Part shown: positions 55,345-63,920 of the stretch, in pieces
Numbering within the stretch: position 1 is the first letter of the stretch
How the letters are laid out: each line of letters starts with the position of its first letter
Notes under the pieces: generated by a model
What the model was told of the DNA's origin: nothing
What the model saw: the letters and a program-made list of their open reading frames with translations, nothing else
Database searches by the model: none
NCBI GenBank assembly: GCA_947462105.1
Contig: CANHNJ010000002.1
Location: forward strand, 62,001-126,000
Source: Alphaproteobacteria bacterium
GTDB taxonomy: Bacteria > Pseudomonadota > Alphaproteobacteria > Micropepsales > Micropepsaceae
Direction: 5' to 3'
DNA: 64,000 bases
Translations under genes and position numbers: made by a program

Positions 55345-56667
55345 ATGGAGACCATGATGAAGAAGATGATCCTGGCCTTGGCCGCCGTCACGGCGCTGTT
55401 CGTGGCCGCGCCCCGTCCCGCCGCCGCCGCCATCGCGGTGGACGTCACCCAGGGCAACATCCAGCCCCTGCCCATCGCCATTCCCGACTTCGTGCCCATC
55501 GGCAATGACGGCGGGGCCGCCGCCCGCATCGCCGCCGTGGTGCGCGCCGACCTGGAACGCTCCGGCCTGTTCCGCCCGCTCGATCCCAAATCCTTCGTGG
55601 ACCGCATCACCGACATCAACACGGTGCCCAATTTCGCCAACTGGCGCGTGATCAATGCGCAGGGCCTGGTGGCCGGTTCGGTGACGGCGCAGCCCGATGG
55701 CCGCCTGCGGGTGGATTTCCGGCTCTGGGATGTCTTTGGTTCCAGCCAGATGCTGGGCATGCAGTATGCCACCACGCCGGAAAACTGGCGGCGCATCGCC
55801 CATCTGGTGTCCGACGCCATCTATGAGCGCATCACGGGCGAGAAGGGCTATTTCGACACCCGCATCGTCTTCATCTCGGAGAGTGGCCCGGCGTTGAGCC
55901 GTACTCGCCGCCTCACCATCATGGACCAGGATGGCGCCAACCCCAATTACCTGACGCCGGGCAGCTACATGGTGCTGACGCCGCGCTTCAATCCCACGGC
56001 GCAGATGATCGCCTATATGAGCTATATCGGCGGCAAGCCGCGCGTCTATCTGTTCGACATCGAGAGCGGCAAGCAGGAACGGCTGGGCGATTTTCCCAAC
56101 ATGACCTTCAGCCCGCGCTTCTCGCCCGACGGCAACCGGGTGGCGATGACGCTGGAGAATGGCGGCAATTCCGACATCTACATCATGGACCTGCGCAACC
56201 GCGCCATGACGCGGCTGACCAGCGATCCGGGCATCGACACCGCGCCGTCCTTCTCGCCCGACGGCACCCAGATCGTGTTCGAAAGCGATCGCGGCGGCAC
56301 GCAGCAGATCTATGTGATGAATGTGGATGGCTCGAACCAGCGTCGCGTCAGCTTCGGCGCCGGGCGCAGCGGCACGCCGGTCTGGAGCCCGCGCGGCGAC
56401 CTGATCGCCTTCACCCGGCAGGCCAATGGCCGCTTCAACATCGGCGTGATGCGGCCCGATGGTTCGGCGGAGCGGATCATCTCCACCGGCTATCACGATG
56501 AAGGCCCCACCTGGGCGCCCAATGGCCGGGTGCTGATGTACACGCGCGAAGGGCAGGGCGGGGCGGCGGCCCAGATCTTCTCCATCGATGTTTTCGGGCG
56601 TAACGAGCGGCGGGTGCAGACCCCCGGCAGCGCCTCCGATCCCGCCTGGTCGCCGGCCATCCAATAA
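55345..56667 (+). CDS. tolB: Tol-Pal system beta-propeller protein TolB
   Basis: The 440-residue periplasmic protein has a signal peptide ([20 protein letters not shown]), the TolB N-terminal domain (about 30-165) and a six-bladed WD40-like propeller with repeated SPDG blocks ([40 protein letters not shown]). It binds Pal and TolA. Start at 55345, 55354 or 55357 are all possible (ATGGAGACCATGATG); the signal peptide is complete in each. Confidence 0.95.
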
Positions 56668-56881
56668 GACGGCTCTTTTGATTCTCCGGGGTTGCCCTGA
56701 TGATTCAATTGGCTAGGATTGGCATGCGGCTCACATAAAAAATTCTCGGTACCGCCCGATTGGGAACATGATTTTTGGCTCTTTTTGGCCCGTTGGGCGT
56801 TGCTGATTTCAGGTGCTTTTGATTTTTCCGCGCCCATTGGGCTGTACCACGGCATTTGTTCTGCTCAGGAGATTGCAAATC

Positions 56882-57433
56882 ATGAAGAATTTCACGCGTC
56901 TGGCCCAGATCGCCAGTGTCTCGGCCCTCCTGCTGGCGGGCGCCTGCACCAGCCGGCCCGAAGCCGTCGCAACCGCCCCGCCGCCGCCGCCCCCGCCGCC
57001 GGCCGCTGCGCCTGCGCCCGCACCGCTGCCCCCGGCCCCGCCGCCGCCGCGCGGCCCGATCCCCGGCAGCGCCGAAGATTTCCGCGTCAATGTCGGCGAC
57101 ACCGTGCATTTCGGCTACGACGCCTATGCGGTGCAGGATTCTGACCGCGCCACGCTGCAGAAACAGGCCACCTGGCTGGGCCAGTATCCCAATGTGCGCG
57201 CCACCGTCGAAGGCCATGCCGACGAACGCGGCACGCGCGAATACAATCTTGCGCTGGGCGCGCGCCGCGCCAACGCCGTGAAGGAGTATATGGTGAGCCT
57301 GGGCGTTTCCGCCGCGCGGGTCGATACCGTCTCCTATGGCAAGGAGCGTCCGATGTGCGCCGAGTCCAACGAAGCCTGCTGGGGCCAGAACCGTCGTGGC
57401 ATCACCGTGGTGGCCGGCGGCGCCGGTTCGTAA
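56882..57433 (+). CDS. pal: Peptidoglycan-associated lipoprotein Pal
   Basis: The 183-residue protein has a lipobox LAGAC (Cys22), a Pro/Ala-rich linker of about 35 residues with eight prolines in a row, and an OmpA-type domain binding peptidoglycan: VHFGYDAYAVQDSDRATLQ, VEGHADERGTREYNLALGAR and RANAVKEYMVSLGV. The polyproline run predicts dependence on EF-P. GGAG lies 10 bases before the ATG. The 214-bp gap after tolB is relatively AT-rich and may hold a separate pal promoter. Confidence 0.95.
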   Translation: MKNFTRLAQIASVSALLLAGACTSRPEAVATAPPPPPPPPAAAPAPAPLPPAPPPPRGPIPGSAEDFRVNVGDTVHFGYDAYAVQDSDRATLQKQATWLGQYPNVRATVEGHADERGTREYNLALGARRANAVKEYMVSLGVSAARVDTVSYGKERPMCAESNEACWGQNRRGITVVAGGAGS

Positions 57434-57501
57434 AAGCGCCCGCTTGTGAGTTCAGGGAAGCGCCCGCCCAGCGCAAGCGTTGGGCGGCGCGACCATCAAA
57501 T

Positions 57502-57537
57502 AAGGGCGTGGGGGTCAAGACCCCGCGCCCTTTTTGC
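57502..57537 (+). terminator. Intrinsic terminator after pal
   Basis: AAGGGCGTGGGG (57502-57513) pairs with CCCCGCGCCCTT (57521-57532), one T-G wobble included, and TTTTT follows. It ends 15 bases before cpoB, so part of the transcripts probably read through. Confidence 0.75.
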
Positions 57538-57551
57538 CAAAAGGTAGGTTC

Positions 57552-58520
57552 ATGAAACAGCGCCTTCTTCTTTCCGCCGCCGCGCTTTTGCTGTGCGCCG
57601 TCTTACCGGCCCAGGCCCAACTCTTCGGCCCCAGCGACGAGCAGATCGCGCATGAGAACGGCCAGGACGCCCAGATCCGCGCCAATGCCCAGGCCATCGA
57701 ATTGGCCAACCAGCAGGCGCAACAGGCCCAGCAGACGCAGCAGCAATTGCAGGCGCAGATTCGCGATCTCAACGACCGGGTTCGCAACCTCACTGACAGC
57801 CTGGCGCGTGCCACCGGCACCAACGAGGAGCTTTCGCACCAGATCGCGCAGCAGAATGCCAGGATCGAAAGCCAGGGCCGCGATTTTGCCTATCGCCTGT
57901 GCGTGCTTTCGGCGCAGCAGCTGGGCGCCGATCCGCAAGGCCTGAACTGCGCCGCCGCCGGTACGCAGAGCGCCTCTGCCGCGCCGCGCCTGAACGCGCC
58001 GATGACGGTGGCGCTGGGCTCGTCGCTGCCACCGATCATGCCCAACTCGGTGGTGCCGTCTTCGGGCACCACGGGCCGTGGTCCCGGCACACTGGGCACG
58101 CTCGCCGCTGCAGGCCCGCCGGCCGCAGCCGGTGGCGATGGGCGCGAGTTCGACAGCGCCATGAACCTGTTGTCGCGGGCGCAGTATAACGAGGCCAGCG
58201 CCGCCTTTCGCTCCTATGCCGACGGCCATCCCGACGATCTCGAGCTGGCGCCGCAGGCGCTCTACTGGGTCGGCAATATCGCCTACATGCAACAGGACTA
58301 TACCGGCGCGGCGCGCATATTTGCTGAGCAGATCAAGAAGTATCCCAAGTCGCCGCGCGGCGCGGACAGCATGCTGAAGATGGGCCAGGCGCTGGTGGCG
58401 CAGGGACAGACCAGCAATGGCTGCACCGCCTTCGCCGCCATCCGGAAGCAGTATCCCGATGCCTCGCCCTCCACCGTTACTGCCGCAGCGAATGCGCGCC
58501 GCGCCGCCAAGTGTGGCTGA
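57552..58520 (+). CDS. cpoB: Cell division coordinator CpoB (YbgF)
   Basis: The 322-residue periplasmic protein has a signal peptide (LLLSAAALLLCAVLPAQAQ), a Gln-rich coiled coil that forms trimers (QAQQTQQQLQAQIRDLNDRV), a low-complexity linker and C-terminal TPR repeats (FDSAMNLLSRAQYNEASAAF, LYWVGNIAYMQQDYTGAARI, MLKMGQALVAQGQTSNGCTA). It tunes PBP1B and Tol-Pal during division. AAGGTAGG precedes the ATG at 57552. Confidence 0.92.
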   Translation: MKQRLLLSAAALLLCAVLPAQAQLFGPSDEQIAHENGQDAQIRANAQAIELANQQAQQAQQTQQQLQAQIRDLNDRVRNLTDSLARATGTNEELSHQIAQQNARIESQGRDFAYRLCVLSAQQLGADPQGLNCAAAGTQSASAAPRLNAPMTVALGSSLPPIMPNSVVPSSGTTGRGPGTLGTLAAAGPPAAAGGDGREFDSAMNLLSRAQYNEASAAFRSYADGHPDDLELAPQALYWVGNIAYMQQDYTGAARIFAEQIKKYPKSPRGADSMLKMGQALVAQGQTSNGCTAFAAIRKQYPDASPSTVTAAANARRAAKCG

Positions 58521-59559
58521 TCGCGCACCCGCCAATCTTGACGCCCGTTTCGCGCGGGTGATGGAAGAGTTCGCTGCAGGCGTCGCCTGGCCAGGCGCCG
58601 TGGCGGTGTCGGGCGGTGGCGACAGCCTCGCCCTGATGCATCTGCTGGCGCGCTGGGCGAAGAAGGCGAAGCTGACGCCGCCACAGGTTCTCGTCGTCGA
58701 TCACGGATTGCGGCCGGAATCGCGCAAGGAAGCGCTGGGCGCTGCCCGCAAGGCCCGCGCCCTGGGTCTTTCCGCCACCGTGCTGCGCTGGACGGGACCG
58801 CATCCAAAAAGTGGTATCGAGGCGGCGGCGCGCCAGGCCCGCTACGCCCTGATGGGCGCGTGGCTGACGCGCAAGAAGCTCACCACGCTTTATGTGGGGC
58901 ATAACCAGGACGAGCAGGCCGAGACCTTCCTGCTGCGGCTGGCGCGGGGCAGCGGCATTGATGGCCTGGCCGCGATGCGGCCGCTGGCGCCCTATCCGCT
59001 GGCCGATTTCCCGCAACTGGCGGTGGCGCGGCCGCTGCTGGGCTTCAGTCGTGCCGAGCTGCGCGCCTGGCTGACGGCGCGGCGCGAAAGCTGGGTGGAA
59101 GATCCCATGAATGACGATCCGCGCTTTGATCGCATCAAGCTGCGCCGTCTGGGGCCTGCCCTGGCCGAAGCGGGCCTGACGCCCGCCCGCATCGCGCTGG
59201 CCGCCGGGCACATGGCGGCGGCGCGCGACCTGATGGAAGGATTGACCGAGGCGCTGCTGGACCGCATCGCCAGCCCGGACCGGGACGGCATCCTGATTGA
59301 TGGCGGCGCGCTGGGCGCTGCGCCCCGCGCGCTGGGTCTGCGGGCCCTGGCCGCGCTGTTGCAGGCGGCTTCGGGCGCGGCCTACCGCCCCCGCTTCGAG
59401 TCCCTGGAGCGGCTGTTCGACCGGCTGGCCGCGCAGACTCTGGGCGGCGGCATGACCCTGTCGGGCTGCCGCATCGGCCCGGCCCCGGCGCGCGAGCGGC
59501 TTTTCGGGGCCCAGACCCTCAAACTGACCCGCGAAAAACCCCGGAAAAGCCCCATTTGA
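58492..59559 (+). CDS. tilS: tRNA(Ile)-lysidine synthetase
   Basis: The enzyme (355 residues from the ATG at 58492) converts C34 of tRNA-Ile(CAU) to lysidine with ATP. It has the PP-loop AVSGGGDSLALMHLLAR, VVDHGLRPESRKEA, and YVGHNQDEQAETFLLRLARG, plus the ARPLLGFSRAELRAWL region. The C-terminal domain is short. The start is not certain: the ATG at 58492 overlaps cpoB by 29 bases, while an in-frame GTG at 58513 overlaps its stop more tightly. Confidence 0.92.
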   Translation: MRAAPPSVADRAPANLDARFARVMEEFAAGVAWPGAVAVSGGGDSLALMHLLARWAKKAKLTPPQVLVVDHGLRPESRKEALGAARKARALGLSATVLRWTGPHPKSGIEAAARQARYALMGAWLTRKKLTTLYVGHNQDEQAETFLLRLARGSGIDGLAAMRPLAPYPLADFPQLAVARPLLGFSRAELRAWLTARRESWVEDPMNDDPRFDRIKLRRLGPALAEAGLTPARIALAAGHMAAARDLMEGLTEALLDRIASPDRDGILIDGGALGAAPRALGLRALAALLQAASGAAYRPRFESLERLFDRLAAQTLGGGMTLSGCRIGPAPARERLFGAQTLKLTREKPRKSPI

Positions 59560-59707
59560 GGGCCAGCACGCGGTTGCGGGGCGGGGGGCAAAGGGCTTAA
59601 CGTTTTGATGGCTGGAAACAGGTTAGAAACGCTCTATCTAAGGATAGGGCGCGAAGCCCCGGCATGACGGTCCGACGCGCAGTTTCCGGGCCAGGAAAGG
59701 TACCGCC

Positions 59708-61633
<1,926 letters not shown>

Positions 61634-61655
61634 CTGGCGCAAATCTGATAGGATG

Positions 61656-61686
61656 GGGCGGCTTTCAGGGCCGCCCTTTCTTTTTG
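61656..61686 (+). terminator. Intrinsic terminator between ftsH and folP
   Basis: GGGCGGC (61656-61662) and GCCGCCC (61670-61676) form a 7-bp stem with a TTTCAGG loop, followed by TTTCTTTTT. The folP ATG is only one base past the end of this element and has no recognisable ribosome site. Confidence 0.75.
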
Positions 61687-61687
61687 C

Positions 61688-62485
61688 ATGAACATCTTCG
61701 GCATTCTCAACGTCACGGACGACAGCTTCTCCGACGGCGGCAAATTCCTCAGCCCCGACGCGGCCATCGCCCATGCCGAATTGCTGGCAGCAGCCGGTGC
61801 CGATGTGATCGACATCGGCGCGGCGTCCTCCAATCCGCGCTCCGCCGCCGTGCCCGCCGAGATCGAGATCGCGCGGCTGGCCGCCATCGTGCCGGCGCTG
61901 CAGGCGCGAGGGCTGAAAATTTCCGTCGATACCTTCTCACTGCCGGTACAGCGCTGGGCGCTGCGCCACGGCGTGGAGTATCTCAACGACATTCACGGCT
62001 TTCCCGACGACGCGCTCTATCCCGAACTCGCCAAGGCGAAATGCGGCCTGGTGGTGATGCACATGGTGCAGGAGGGCGGCGTGGCGGTGGGCATGGATGT
62101 GCCGACGCCGGAAATCTTCGCCCGCGTCACAAGCTTCTTCGATCACCGCATCGCGGCGCTGACGGCGGCGGGGATCGCGCGCGAACGGCTGGTGCTCGAT
62201 CCCGGCATGGGCTTCTTCCTTGGCCGCGATCCGCAGAACTCGTTCGAGATCTTGCGCCGCCTGCCGGAGCTGAAAGCGCGCTATGGCTTGCCGATGCTGG
62301 TCTCGGTCTCGCGCAAGTCCTTCCTGCGGGCCGGGCGGCCGCCGGGCGGCAGCGACGTGGCAGGCGCCAGCCTTGCCGCCGAGCTGTTCGCGCAGGCCAA
62401 TGGCGCCACGCATATCCGCACCCATGCGCCGGGGCCGCTTCGGATGGGCCTCAAGACCCTGAAAGACATAGGGAAATCGCGGTAA
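61688..62485 (+). CDS. folP: Dihydropteroate synthase, Sul1/Sul2-like type
   Basis: The 265-residue TIM-barrel enzyme joins pABA and hydroxymethyl-dihydropterin pyrophosphate in folate synthesis. The start [15 protein letters not shown] has Asp where ordinary FolP has Pro (NVTPDSFSDGG). The FolP loop GGESTRPG is replaced by [13 protein letters not shown], and [48 protein letters not shown]-like ([11 protein letters not shown]) and RTHAPG agree with the mobile sulfonamide-resistance enzymes Sul1/Sul2 as I remember them. Thus it is a chromosomal relative of Sul enzymes in the normal folP position before glmM. It may be intrinsically insensitive to sulfonamides; no other folP is visible here. 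A terminator lies right before the start. Confidence 0.9.
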
Positions 62486-62573
62486 GAGAGCGTCACCCTT
62501 CGTGACGCGACGCCGTGGATGGGGTTTGTTATCCAATCATGGTAAATTCCCCCTTATTTCCGGAAATTCCCGC

Positions 62574-63920
62574 ATGACCCGCAAATATTTCGGCACTGAC
62601 GGCATTCGTGGCCGCACCAACTCCGCCGCCCTGACGCCCGAAGTGGCGATGAAGGCGGGCATGGCAGCAGGCCGCGTCTTCACCAAGGGCGGCCATCGTC
62701 ACCGCGTCGTGATCGGCAAGGACACGCGCCTGTCGGGCTACATGATCGAAAGCGCGCTGGTCGCCGGTTTCACCGCCGTGGGCATGGATGTGTTCCAGTT
62801 CGGCCCGCTGCCCACCCCCGCCGTCGCCATGCTGACGCGGTCTTTGCGCGCCGATCTGGGCGTGATGATCACCGCCTCGCACAATCCCTTTACCGACAAC
62901 GGCATCAAGTTCTTCGGCCCCGACGGCCAGAAACTGTCGGACGAAGTCGAGCTGGAAATCGAGGCGCTGATGGATGGCGGCCTGGCCGATGGTTTGGCTC
63001 TGGGCGGCGCGATTGGCCGCGCCAAGCGCGTCGATGACAGCCAGGCGCGCTATATCGAGTTCGCCAAGCGGACGATTCCCCGCAATGTGCGGCTGGATGG
63101 GCTGCGCATCGTGATCGATTGCGCCAACGGCGCTGCCTACAAGGTCGCGCCCGCCGTGCTATGGGAACTGGGGGCGGATATCGTGCCGCTGGGCGTCACC
63201 CCGGACGGCGTCAACGTCAATCTCGATTGCGGCTCCACCCATCCAGAGGCCCTCTGCGCCAAGGTGCGCGAAGTGCGCGCCGATTTCGGCATCGCGCTGG
63301 ACGGCGACGCCGACCGCGTCGTGATGGCCGATGAAAAGGGCGAGATCATCGATGGCGACCAGATCCTGGCGTTGATCGCCAAGAGCTGGTCGAAGAGCGG
63401 CAAGCTCAAGGGCGGCGGCGTGGTCGGCACCGTGATGTCGAATGCCGGGCTGGATCATTACCTGCAATCGCTGGGCCTGACGCTGGCGCGCTCCGCCGTC
63501 GGCGACCGCTATGTGCTGGAACAGATGCTCAAGGGCGGCTTCAATGTCGGCGGCGAGCAGTCGGGCCACATCATCCTCTCCGATATTTCCACCACCGGGG
63601 ACGGGCTGGTGGCGGCGCTGCAGGTGCTGGCGGTGCTGGCGGGTGAGGGCAAGCCGGCGTCCGAGGCCGCCCACCTGTTCAATCCCCTGCCGCAGATATT
63701 GGAGAATGTGCGCTTCAAGAAAGGCACGCCGCTGGAAAATGCCAAGGTCAAGTCCTGCATCGAGGCCGGCAATGCCCGCCTGGGCAGCCATGGCCGCATC
63801 CTGGTGCGCAAGTCCGGCACCGAGCCCTTGATCCGCGTCATGGCCGAAGGCGAGGACGAAACGCTGGTGCGCGCCGTGGTGCGCGATATCGCCAACGCGA
63901 TCGAAGAGGCAGCGGCTTGA
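62574..63920 (+). CDS. glmM: Phosphoglucosamine mutase
   Basis: The 448-residue enzyme converts glucosamine-6-P to glucosamine-1-P for cell-wall and LPS synthesis. It has [20 protein letters not shown], the phosphoserine loop [17 protein letters not shown] with Ser102, the metal loop [21 protein letters not shown], and the phosphate-binding [16 protein letters not shown] start at the ATG at 62574, which matches the family. A 7-bp hairpin (GCGTCAC/GTGACGC, 62490-62508) lies between folP and glmM without a T-run. Confidence 0.97.

What the first reader, a model, noticed from the sequence alone, without database searches (positions are those of the whole stretch)
61688..63920. Chromosomal Sul1/Sul2-like dihydropteroate synthase in the native folP-glmM locus
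The folP product departs from normal FolP at the substrate loops ([11 protein letters not shown] in place of [24 protein letters not shown] in place of GGESTRPG) and shares blocks such as [22 protein letters not shown] and RTHAPG with the mobile sulfonamide-resistance enzymes. From established knowledge, mobile sul2 is often followed by a glmM fragment and sul genes are thought to derive from an alphaproteobacterial or Leptospira-like folP. Here the gene sits intact between ftsH and full-length glmM, i.e. a possible chromosomal relative of the ancestral arrangement. It would also imply natural sulfonamide insensitivity.
Basis: partly seen in the sequence, partly recalled or inferred. Interest (0 to 1): 0.85.

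Follow-up and report, generated by a model that had tools for sequence, protein, structure and literature searches.

The report
Native Sul-type folate enzyme (folP*)
This bacterium's only dihydropteroate synthase is a natural cousin of the enzymes that make pathogens resistant to sulfa drugs; it belongs to a known kind, and comparing it with relatives led to a much closer chromosomal source for the resistance gene sul2.

Summary
folP at 61688-62485 encodes a Sul-type DHPS ("FolP*") between intact ftsH and full-length glmM, 56-59% identical to Sul2, 46-48% to Sul3 and Sul1, 35% to E. coli FolP. It groups with Sul1-3 even with the drug-pocket motif left out of the tree (100/99). It is the only DHPS found in the genome; folK and dfr are present. 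It has the Sul signature GMGFFL with the Phe known to block sulfonamides, so insensitivity is likely but untested. The kind is published (Rhodobiaceae, Leptospiraceae).

New here: (1) FolP* was found in 89 of 96 genomes of this order and in 9 of 173 sampled alphaproteobacterial families; neighbouring genes fit one ancient acquisition plus later replacement. (2) The drug-blocking Phe drifts in this order: F 56, M 11, Q 10, L 7, Y 2, A 1 of 87; the three nearest relatives have Gln. (3) The window gene is not the sul2 donor; a Parvibaculum lineage is. Genome G505 carries folP-glmM matching plasmid sul2 with its glmM stub over 1,155 ungapped bases at 84.7% (published best donor: 63%). (4) The tree rejects the published derivation of sul1 from sul2.

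The parts
61688..62485 (+). folP*: Sul-type dihydropteroate synthase, 265 aa, the only DHPS found in the genome
61709..61741 (+). loop 1, [11 protein letters not shown] (residues 8-18; Asp11 where classical FolP mostly has Pro)
61814..61852 (+). loop 2, [13 protein letters not shown] (residues 43-55; Ser48 = Sul2 Ser52, Thr in 41 of 42 classical rows)
62195..62224 (+). alpha-6 Sul motif [10 protein letters not shown] (residues 170-179) with the two-residue insertion
62213..62215 (+). codon of Phe176, equivalent to Sul1 F178 / Sul2 F179 / Sul3 F177, the sulfonamide-blocking residue
   Evidence: role from PMC10328974
62574..63920 (+). glmM, full-length phosphoglucosamine mutase, 448 aa; the sul2 plasmids examined carry only the first part of the corresponding gene
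59708..61633 (+). ftsH, upstream neighbour
61655..61677 (+). terminator-like hairpin followed by a T run that ends 2 nt before the folP ATG

Best explanation
The window gene is the resident, only detected dihydropteroate synthase of an alphaproteobacterium and belongs to the FolP*/Sul clade. It should condense 6-hydroxymethyl-dihydropterin pyrophosphate with pABA as any DHPS does. Shown: clade membership, conserved catalytic residues, the alpha-6 insertion with Phe176, native synteny, and no other DHPS found. Inferred from the solved Sul enzymes: Phe176 sits at the pABA carboxylate and would clash with sulfonamides, so the enzyme is probably sulfonamide-insensitive. Also inferred, from the neighbour-gene tree: FolP* was gained before at least seven alphaproteobacterial families diverged and was mostly inherited vertically at ftsH-folP-glmM. 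The gene is a cousin of the mobile sul genes, not their source; sul2 with its glmM stub was lifted from a Parvibaculum-type chromosome. The drift of the drug-blocking Phe within this order suggests that resistance is a by-product of a remodelled pABA site and not a maintained defence.
For: Nearest solved relatives are Sul2, Sul3 and Sul1; the predicted model's best folds are Sul2, then Sul3 and Sul1. Tree without the motif columns: 50 FolP*/Sul rows against 23 classical rows including E. coli, 100/99. Pterin, PPi and Lys residues conserved (N8, S13, F14, S48, N100, D171 in 87 of 87; K210 in 86 of 86 rows with a residue); M174 and F177 in 87 of 87. Two Pterin_bind genes in the genome; the other is methionine synthase. 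HPPK and DHFR present. In the order: 89 of 96 genomes, 59 of 60 good ones. FtsH+GlmM proteins: the 28 FolP* carriers of seven families are not rejected as one clade (constrained tree 25.8 lnL better, p-AU 0.845). Published tests: P. lavamentivorans and L. interrogans folP* give SMX MIC >512 and 512 mg/L in E. coli (PMC6335563), and Sul Phe-to-Gly restores sensitivity (PMC10328974). Sul2 nested in Parvibaculum.
Against: I found no drug test for this enzyme or order. Of 87 sequences of the order, 29 lack Phe/Tyr at position 176, so the residue is not needed for the enzyme's own job, and insensitivity cannot be generalised even to sister species. The AlphaFold model has pLDDT <50 at residues 176-179, so the placement of Phe176 rests on alignment only. 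The free neighbour-gene tree (quick method) put two classical carriers (L149, L161) inside the FolP* clade, and split the window's family weakly, so single acquisition rests on the constrained test. f142 could not be included there, and JOPF122 fell outside. Leptospiral and chlamydial sequences could not be fetched, so the direction of the original transfer is untested.
Confidence: 0.8

Rival explanations
1. The gene is a mobile sul gene recently acquired by this genome.
For: It shares the Sul motif and up to 59% identity with Sul2.
Against: The six neighbouring genes tested are tolB, pal, a TPR protein, tilS, ftsH and glmM; its GC is 66.8% against 65.2% for the window; it was found in 89 of 96 genomes of the order; no plasmid record matches it by megablast.
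Confidence: 0.02
2. It is an ordinary sulfonamide-sensitive FolP whose likeness to Sul is superficial.
For: Most catalytic residues are common to both kinds, and the TIGR01496 DHPS model is met.
Against: 100/99 grouping with Sul after removing the motif columns; the two inserted residues are absent from 39 of 42 classical rows; gap between 48% and 43% identity.
Confidence: 0.03
3. It is a true FolP* but sulfonamides still inhibit it appreciably, because other pocket residues, not Phe176 alone, decide sensitivity.
For: Position 176 varies in the order (F/M/Q/L/Y/A) and the window's three nearest relatives have Gln. Sul Leu180 also matters (PMC10328974); in the order that site is Leu or Val.
Against: The window enzyme has Met174, Phe176, Phe177 and Leu178 exactly as Sul1-3, and two published FolP* enzymes confer resistance (PMC6335563).
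Confidence: 0.2
4. Insensitivity is maintained by selection from a natural pABA mimic rather than being a by-product.
For: FolP* is old and widespread and carries the Phe in all 20 class-sample rows outside the window's family and in all 28 Parvibaculaceae loci read.
Against: Within the window's order the Phe is replaced repeatedly (fewest changes of state at this site on the best quick tree: 12); it ranks 176th of 265 positions in conservation, although Met174, Gly175 and Phe177 beside it are invariant. PMC6335563 states that no natural sulfonamide targeting DHPS is known.
Confidence: 0.25

Closest known systems
Chromosomal FolP* of Rhodobiaceae (Parvibaculum lavamentivorans) and Leptospiraceae (PMC6335563)
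   Same: Sul motif with two-residue insertion; resident DHPS; in Rhodobiaceae flanked by ftsH (or tetR) and glmM.
   Different: A different alphaproteobacterial order, in which the drug-blocking Phe varies. The paper placed chromosomal Sul motifs in two families (plus an uptake by Amycolatopsis and a Pseudomonas contig); here 9 of 173 sampled alphaproteobacterial families have FolP*. PMC10328974 already notes the Gly-Phe-Phe motif in hundreds of NCBI DHPS entries, without saying in which groups in the parts read.
Mobile Sul2 (PDB 7s2j, 7s2k)
   Same: 56-59% identity, same alpha-6 motif, best structural match.
   Different: The window gene is chromosomal with full-length glmM. Sul2 itself is 90% identical to a Parvibaculum folP*, not to this one.
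Sul1 and Sul3
   Same: 46-48% identity and the same motif.
   Different: Neither is a close relative; for Sul1 the best of 40 Parvibaculaceae genomes reaches 55%.
Classical FolP (E. coli)
   Same: Reaction, fold, most catalytic residues and the ftsH-folP-glmM order.
   Different: 35% identity; GFGFGK at alpha-6 without the insertion; GGESTRPG in loop 2.

Membership tests
FolP*/Sul-type DHPS | two-residue insertion at alpha-6 (GMGFFL against GFGFGK) | tested here: met
FolP*/Sul-type DHPS | joint branching with Sul1-3 outside that motif | tested here: met
   columns of residues 168-181 dropped, 100/99
FolP*/Sul-type DHPS | Phe at Sul1 position 178, Met at 176, Leu at 180 | tested here: met
   F176, M174, L178 of the window protein; 29 of 87 members of its order lack Phe/Tyr there
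FolP*/Sul-type DHPS | sulfonamide insensitivity with normal pABA use | not testable with these tools
   no assay possible; published for Sul1-3 enzymes (PMC10328974) and, as resistance in E. coli, for two other FolP* genes (PMC6335563)
Mobile sul2 (donor candidate) | near-identity with plasmid sul2 and its glmM stub | tested here: not met
   no megablast match on plasmids; 59.3% codon-aligned nt identity to sul2, against 82.6% for G505
Mobile sul2 (donor candidate) | NCBIfam Sul2 model cut-off | tested here: not met
   310 bits, cut-off 575
Dihydropteroate synthase (TIGR01496, PF00809) | family models and catalytic residues | tested here: met
   226 bits over 162.6; 201.9 over 25.5; residues
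Rhodobiaceae-type folP* locus | flanked by ftsH and glmM | tested here: met
   in the order 74 of 87 have ftsH upstream and 83 of 87 glmM downstream within the fetched stretches, the rest not seen there. The same order in E. coli makes this a weak criterion

The most novel reading that the evidence does not exclude
FolP* is not a rarity of two families but the ancestral resident DHPS of a deep alphaproteobacterial clade. In the window's order its sulfonamide gatekeeper (Phe176) is selectively free, giving natural sister species with and without the drug-blocking residue. This supports resistance as a pure by-product that existed long before the drugs. sul2 was cut from one Parvibaculum lineage as a piece of about 1,155 bp starting 11 bp before the start codon, and sul1 is a separate capture.
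Probability: 0.5. Interest if true: 0.75.

Novelty: new member of a known kind. Interest (0 to 1): 0.58.

Why it matters
PMC10328974 states that the direct ancestor of the sul genes has not been identified. Placing this gene showed that the reservoir of Sul-type enzymes reaches across several families of Alphaproteobacteria. It also gave a chromosomal relative of sul2 at 83-85% DNA identity with breakpoints, where the best published chromosomal donor was 63%. The order also offers natural enzymes that differ at the residue shown to decide drug binding in Sul1-3, which makes the question of by-product against natural selection testable with purified enzymes.

Tried and rejected
Considered and rejected: recent acquisition of a mobile sul gene; ordinary FolP; the window lineage as sul2 donor (see rivals and membership test). 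The second Pterin_bind hit (G000 contig 13) looked like a second folP but is methionine synthase. Motif hits in 349 Pseudomonadota genomes: 6 with a match, one the window itself; of the other five, G581 carries sul1 (99.9% over 837 bases) and G775 sul2 (100% over 813), and three had no DHPS match in the script. A viral-contig scan found no relative. The single scan of named genomes gave one relative, a Rhodospirillales MAG at 52%. An attempt to name the window's order through complete-genome lengths gave only unrelated listings. Literature: Micropepsaceae with sulfonamide gave one listing, not read; of 296 papers holding two of Rhizomicrobium, Micropepsaceae, folP and dihydropteroate, the 15 listed hold neither taxon name.

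Rows dropped: of the 89 genomes of the window's family with a match, 87 (window included) entered the residue counts; G040 and G044 were left out because their matches are fragments. From 385 class genomes the 25 high-identity hits were used (20 outside the window's family), but only 41 of the 268 genomes with a lower-identity match were fetched, mostly top-scoring ones; trees use subsets of these. The trees are quick ones without bootstrap; the bootstrap had not settled. The test that all 30 FolP* carriers form one clade was started and not finished.

Full report
What is there. The window carries tolB, pal, a TPR protein, tilS, ftsH, folP and glmM in one direction (55345-63920). folP (61688-62485) gives a 265-aa dihydropteroate synthase (DHPS). 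Sequence search against solved structures ranks Sul2 first (E 2e-86), then Sul3 and Sul1 (about 1e-70), with ordinary DHPS at 1e-41 or weaker. The curated DHPS model is passed. The Sul1-3 models are matched strongly but below their cut-offs, so it is not itself Sul1, Sul2 or Sul3. An AlphaFold model from two sequences (mean pLDDT 78) matches Sul2 best, then Sul3 and Sul1. Residues 176-179 are poorly modelled, so I draw nothing from the model about the drug pocket.

Only DHPS found. The 2.17-Mb genome (98% complete) has two pterin-binding genes; the other is B12-dependent methionine synthase. HPPK and dihydrofolate reductase are present, so the folate pathway appears to run and this gene should be its DHPS.

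Pocket. Residue numbers of the Sul paper were mapped by alignment. Pterin, pyrophosphate and lysine contacts are the same as in Sul and mostly as in FolP. The alpha-6 segment reads [10 protein letters not shown] as in Sul2, with Phe176 in the place of Sul1 F178 / Sul2 F179 / Sul3 F177. PMC10328974 (parts 1-5 of 11 and search passages read) shows that this Phe blocks sulfonamides: Sul1 Ki for sulfamethoxazole 735 uM, F178G 3 uM, E. coli DHPS 5 uM. Of 42 classical rows, E. coli included, 39 lack both inserted residues; one has one extra residue and two (family f131) have two with other letters.

Tree. With the motif columns removed, 50 FolP*/Sul rows separate from 23 classical rows at 100/99, and the window protein lies with its own family.

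How wide. All 96 genomes held of the window's order belong to one family (7 genera). 89 have the gene, and 59 of 60 of good quality do. In an even draw of 385 alphaproteobacterial genomes (173 family codes) 25 have a hit of at least 48% identity; the next best-scoring hits have 43% or less. Those 25 fall in nine families: f1, f9, f18, f39 (1 of 4 sampled), f54, f121, f123, f126 and f142. An exact motif scan found 23 of the same 25; the two missed have Gln and Leu at the key site. PMC10328974 already remarks that the Gly-Phe-Phe motif occurs in hundreds of NCBI DHPS entries, so breadth as such was hinted at. I take the window's order to be Micropepsales (Rhizomicrobium and kin) from recall of a one-family alphaproteobacterial order; no call shows it. 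f9 is Parvibaculaceae ('Rhodobiaceae' of the 2019 paper): its genome G486 is one contig of 3,914,745 bases, the size given for P. lavamentivorans DS-1 in PMC3597637 (one passage seen), and its folP is 63.3% identical to sul2 where PMC6335563 prints 63.33% for that species.

Vertical or lateral. A tree of the neighbouring FtsH and GlmM proteins was built for 60 genomes. Holding the 28 FolP* carriers of seven families together gives a better tree than the free search (25.8 lnL, p-AU 0.845). The quick free tree had put two classical carriers among them and split the window's family weakly. Adding the f39 carrier is rejected (p-AU 0.0056). In that genome folP* lies inverted between ftsH and glmM, while the two family members fetched have classical folP, so it was probably replaced laterally. 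JOPF122 also fell outside the clade but was not tested, and f142 had no usable glmM. PMC6335563 (parts 1-5 of 8 read) proposes transfer from Leptospiraceae into a Rhodobiaceae ancestor; the present data suggest that FolP* was in Alphaproteobacteria before seven families split.

The gatekeeper drifts. In 87 sequences of the window's order the site equal to Sul1 F178 is F 56, M 11, Q 10, L 7, Y 2, A 1, while Met174, Gly175 and Phe177 never vary. It ranks 176th of 265 in conservation. The best quick tree (97 rows, 10 of them from outside the order) needs at least 12 changes of state, 8 between F/Y and the rest; its starred branches alone force fewer (4 for the F label). The window's three nearest relatives (L005-L007, 66-67% identity) have Gln, others a little further (L008, L009, L011, 64%) keep Phe. 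All 20 class-sample FolP* rows outside this family and all 28 Parvibaculaceae loci read have Phe. So in this order the insertion is fixed but the drug-blocking residue is not. I read this as resistance being a by-product here. The rival, maintained selection, is not excluded elsewhere.

Source of sul2. Searching the 40 genomes of f9 with Sul2 found G505 with 91% identity, G504 81% and G508 75%. Codon-aligned, G505 folP is 82.6% nt and 90.4% aa identical to sul2; the window is 59.3 and 57.9. Plasmid sul2 with its glmM stub (L025 2972-4126) aligns to G505 over 1,155 bases without a gap at 84.7%. Likeness starts 11 bp before the start codon and stops inside glmM, where the plasmid departs. Of 4,435 plasmid records matching this locus, 4,398 have their best place at 80-90%, 36 at 60-80% and 1 at 90-95%; the 22 listed sul2 rows begin at base 254-255 and end at 1408-1409 of the query. 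In G505 the gene is followed by full-length glmM with ftsH 5.4 kb upstream, and these neighbours match Parvibaculum (ftsH 85-90%, glmM 84-93%). In a 54-row tree Sul2 is sister to G505 (100/99) and nested in Parvibaculum by further starred branches. Holding Sul1 with Sul2 is rejected (30.5 lnL, p-AU 0.00036), against the published derivation of sul1 from sul2; Sul1 is a long branch, so caution is due. G505 is a draft genome (92% complete, 2% contamination) and at 83% is a relative, not the donor strain. A search for sul2 with Parvibaculum returned only PMC6335563; one for three of sul2, glmM, Rhodobiaceae and folP since 2019 listed five papers, of which I read only the two cited above. Most subscription journals are not held.

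Verdict. It is a new member of a known kind, a cousin and not the ancestor of sul2. Drug insensitivity is likely for this protein, not shown, and should not be assumed for its sister species.

Noticed in passing
L209 (G505 contig 22), 6753-7907: Parvibaculum-type chromosomal folP-glmM matching plasmid sul2 plus its glmM stub over 1,155 ungapped bases at 84.7%; much closer than the published 63%.
   Followed up: yes
L026 (Sul1) in the 54-row tree: Sul1 does not join Sul2 (p-AU 0.00036), against the published derivation of sul1 from sul2; its best relative in the 40 Parvibaculaceae genomes is 55% identical.
   Followed up: partly
window 61655-61687: A terminator-like hairpin with T run ends 2 nt before the folP ATG, and no Shine-Dalgarno is apparent by eye; similar hairpins precede folP in several congeners. 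Terminator matches in this region are no more than shuffles give, but the fold is stronger than shuffles (z -2.6). folP may have its own start or a leaderless message.
   Followed up: partly
L075 (family f39): folP* lies inverted between ftsH and glmM where the two family members fetched have classical folP: probable lateral replacement in place.
   Followed up: yes
L162 and L174 (family f131): Two DHPS have a two-residue alpha-6 insertion with other residues (GWSAFLS, GWGRFVS). L162 falls on the classical side of the tree; L174 was not in it. Possibly an independent remodelling of the same site.
   Followed up: no
window 55345-63920: Order tolB-pal-TPR-tilS-ftsH-folP*-glmM. PMC6335563 reports leptospiral folP* between a Pal lipoprotein and a TPR protein, so the leptospiral locus might be a remnant of this cluster; no leptospiral DNA was available to test it.
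   Followed up: no
L204 (G581) and L205 (G775): Two genomes from other classes of the phylum carry acquired sul genes: sul1 (99.9%) and sul2 (100%).
   Followed up: partly
window 61688-62485: The window FolP sits on a longer branch (0.42-0.5) than its sister L005 (0.15-0.2), and its genome (2.17 Mb) is near the low end of the family (1.8-5.0 Mb, some incomplete): perhaps faster evolution of this gene.
   Followed up: no
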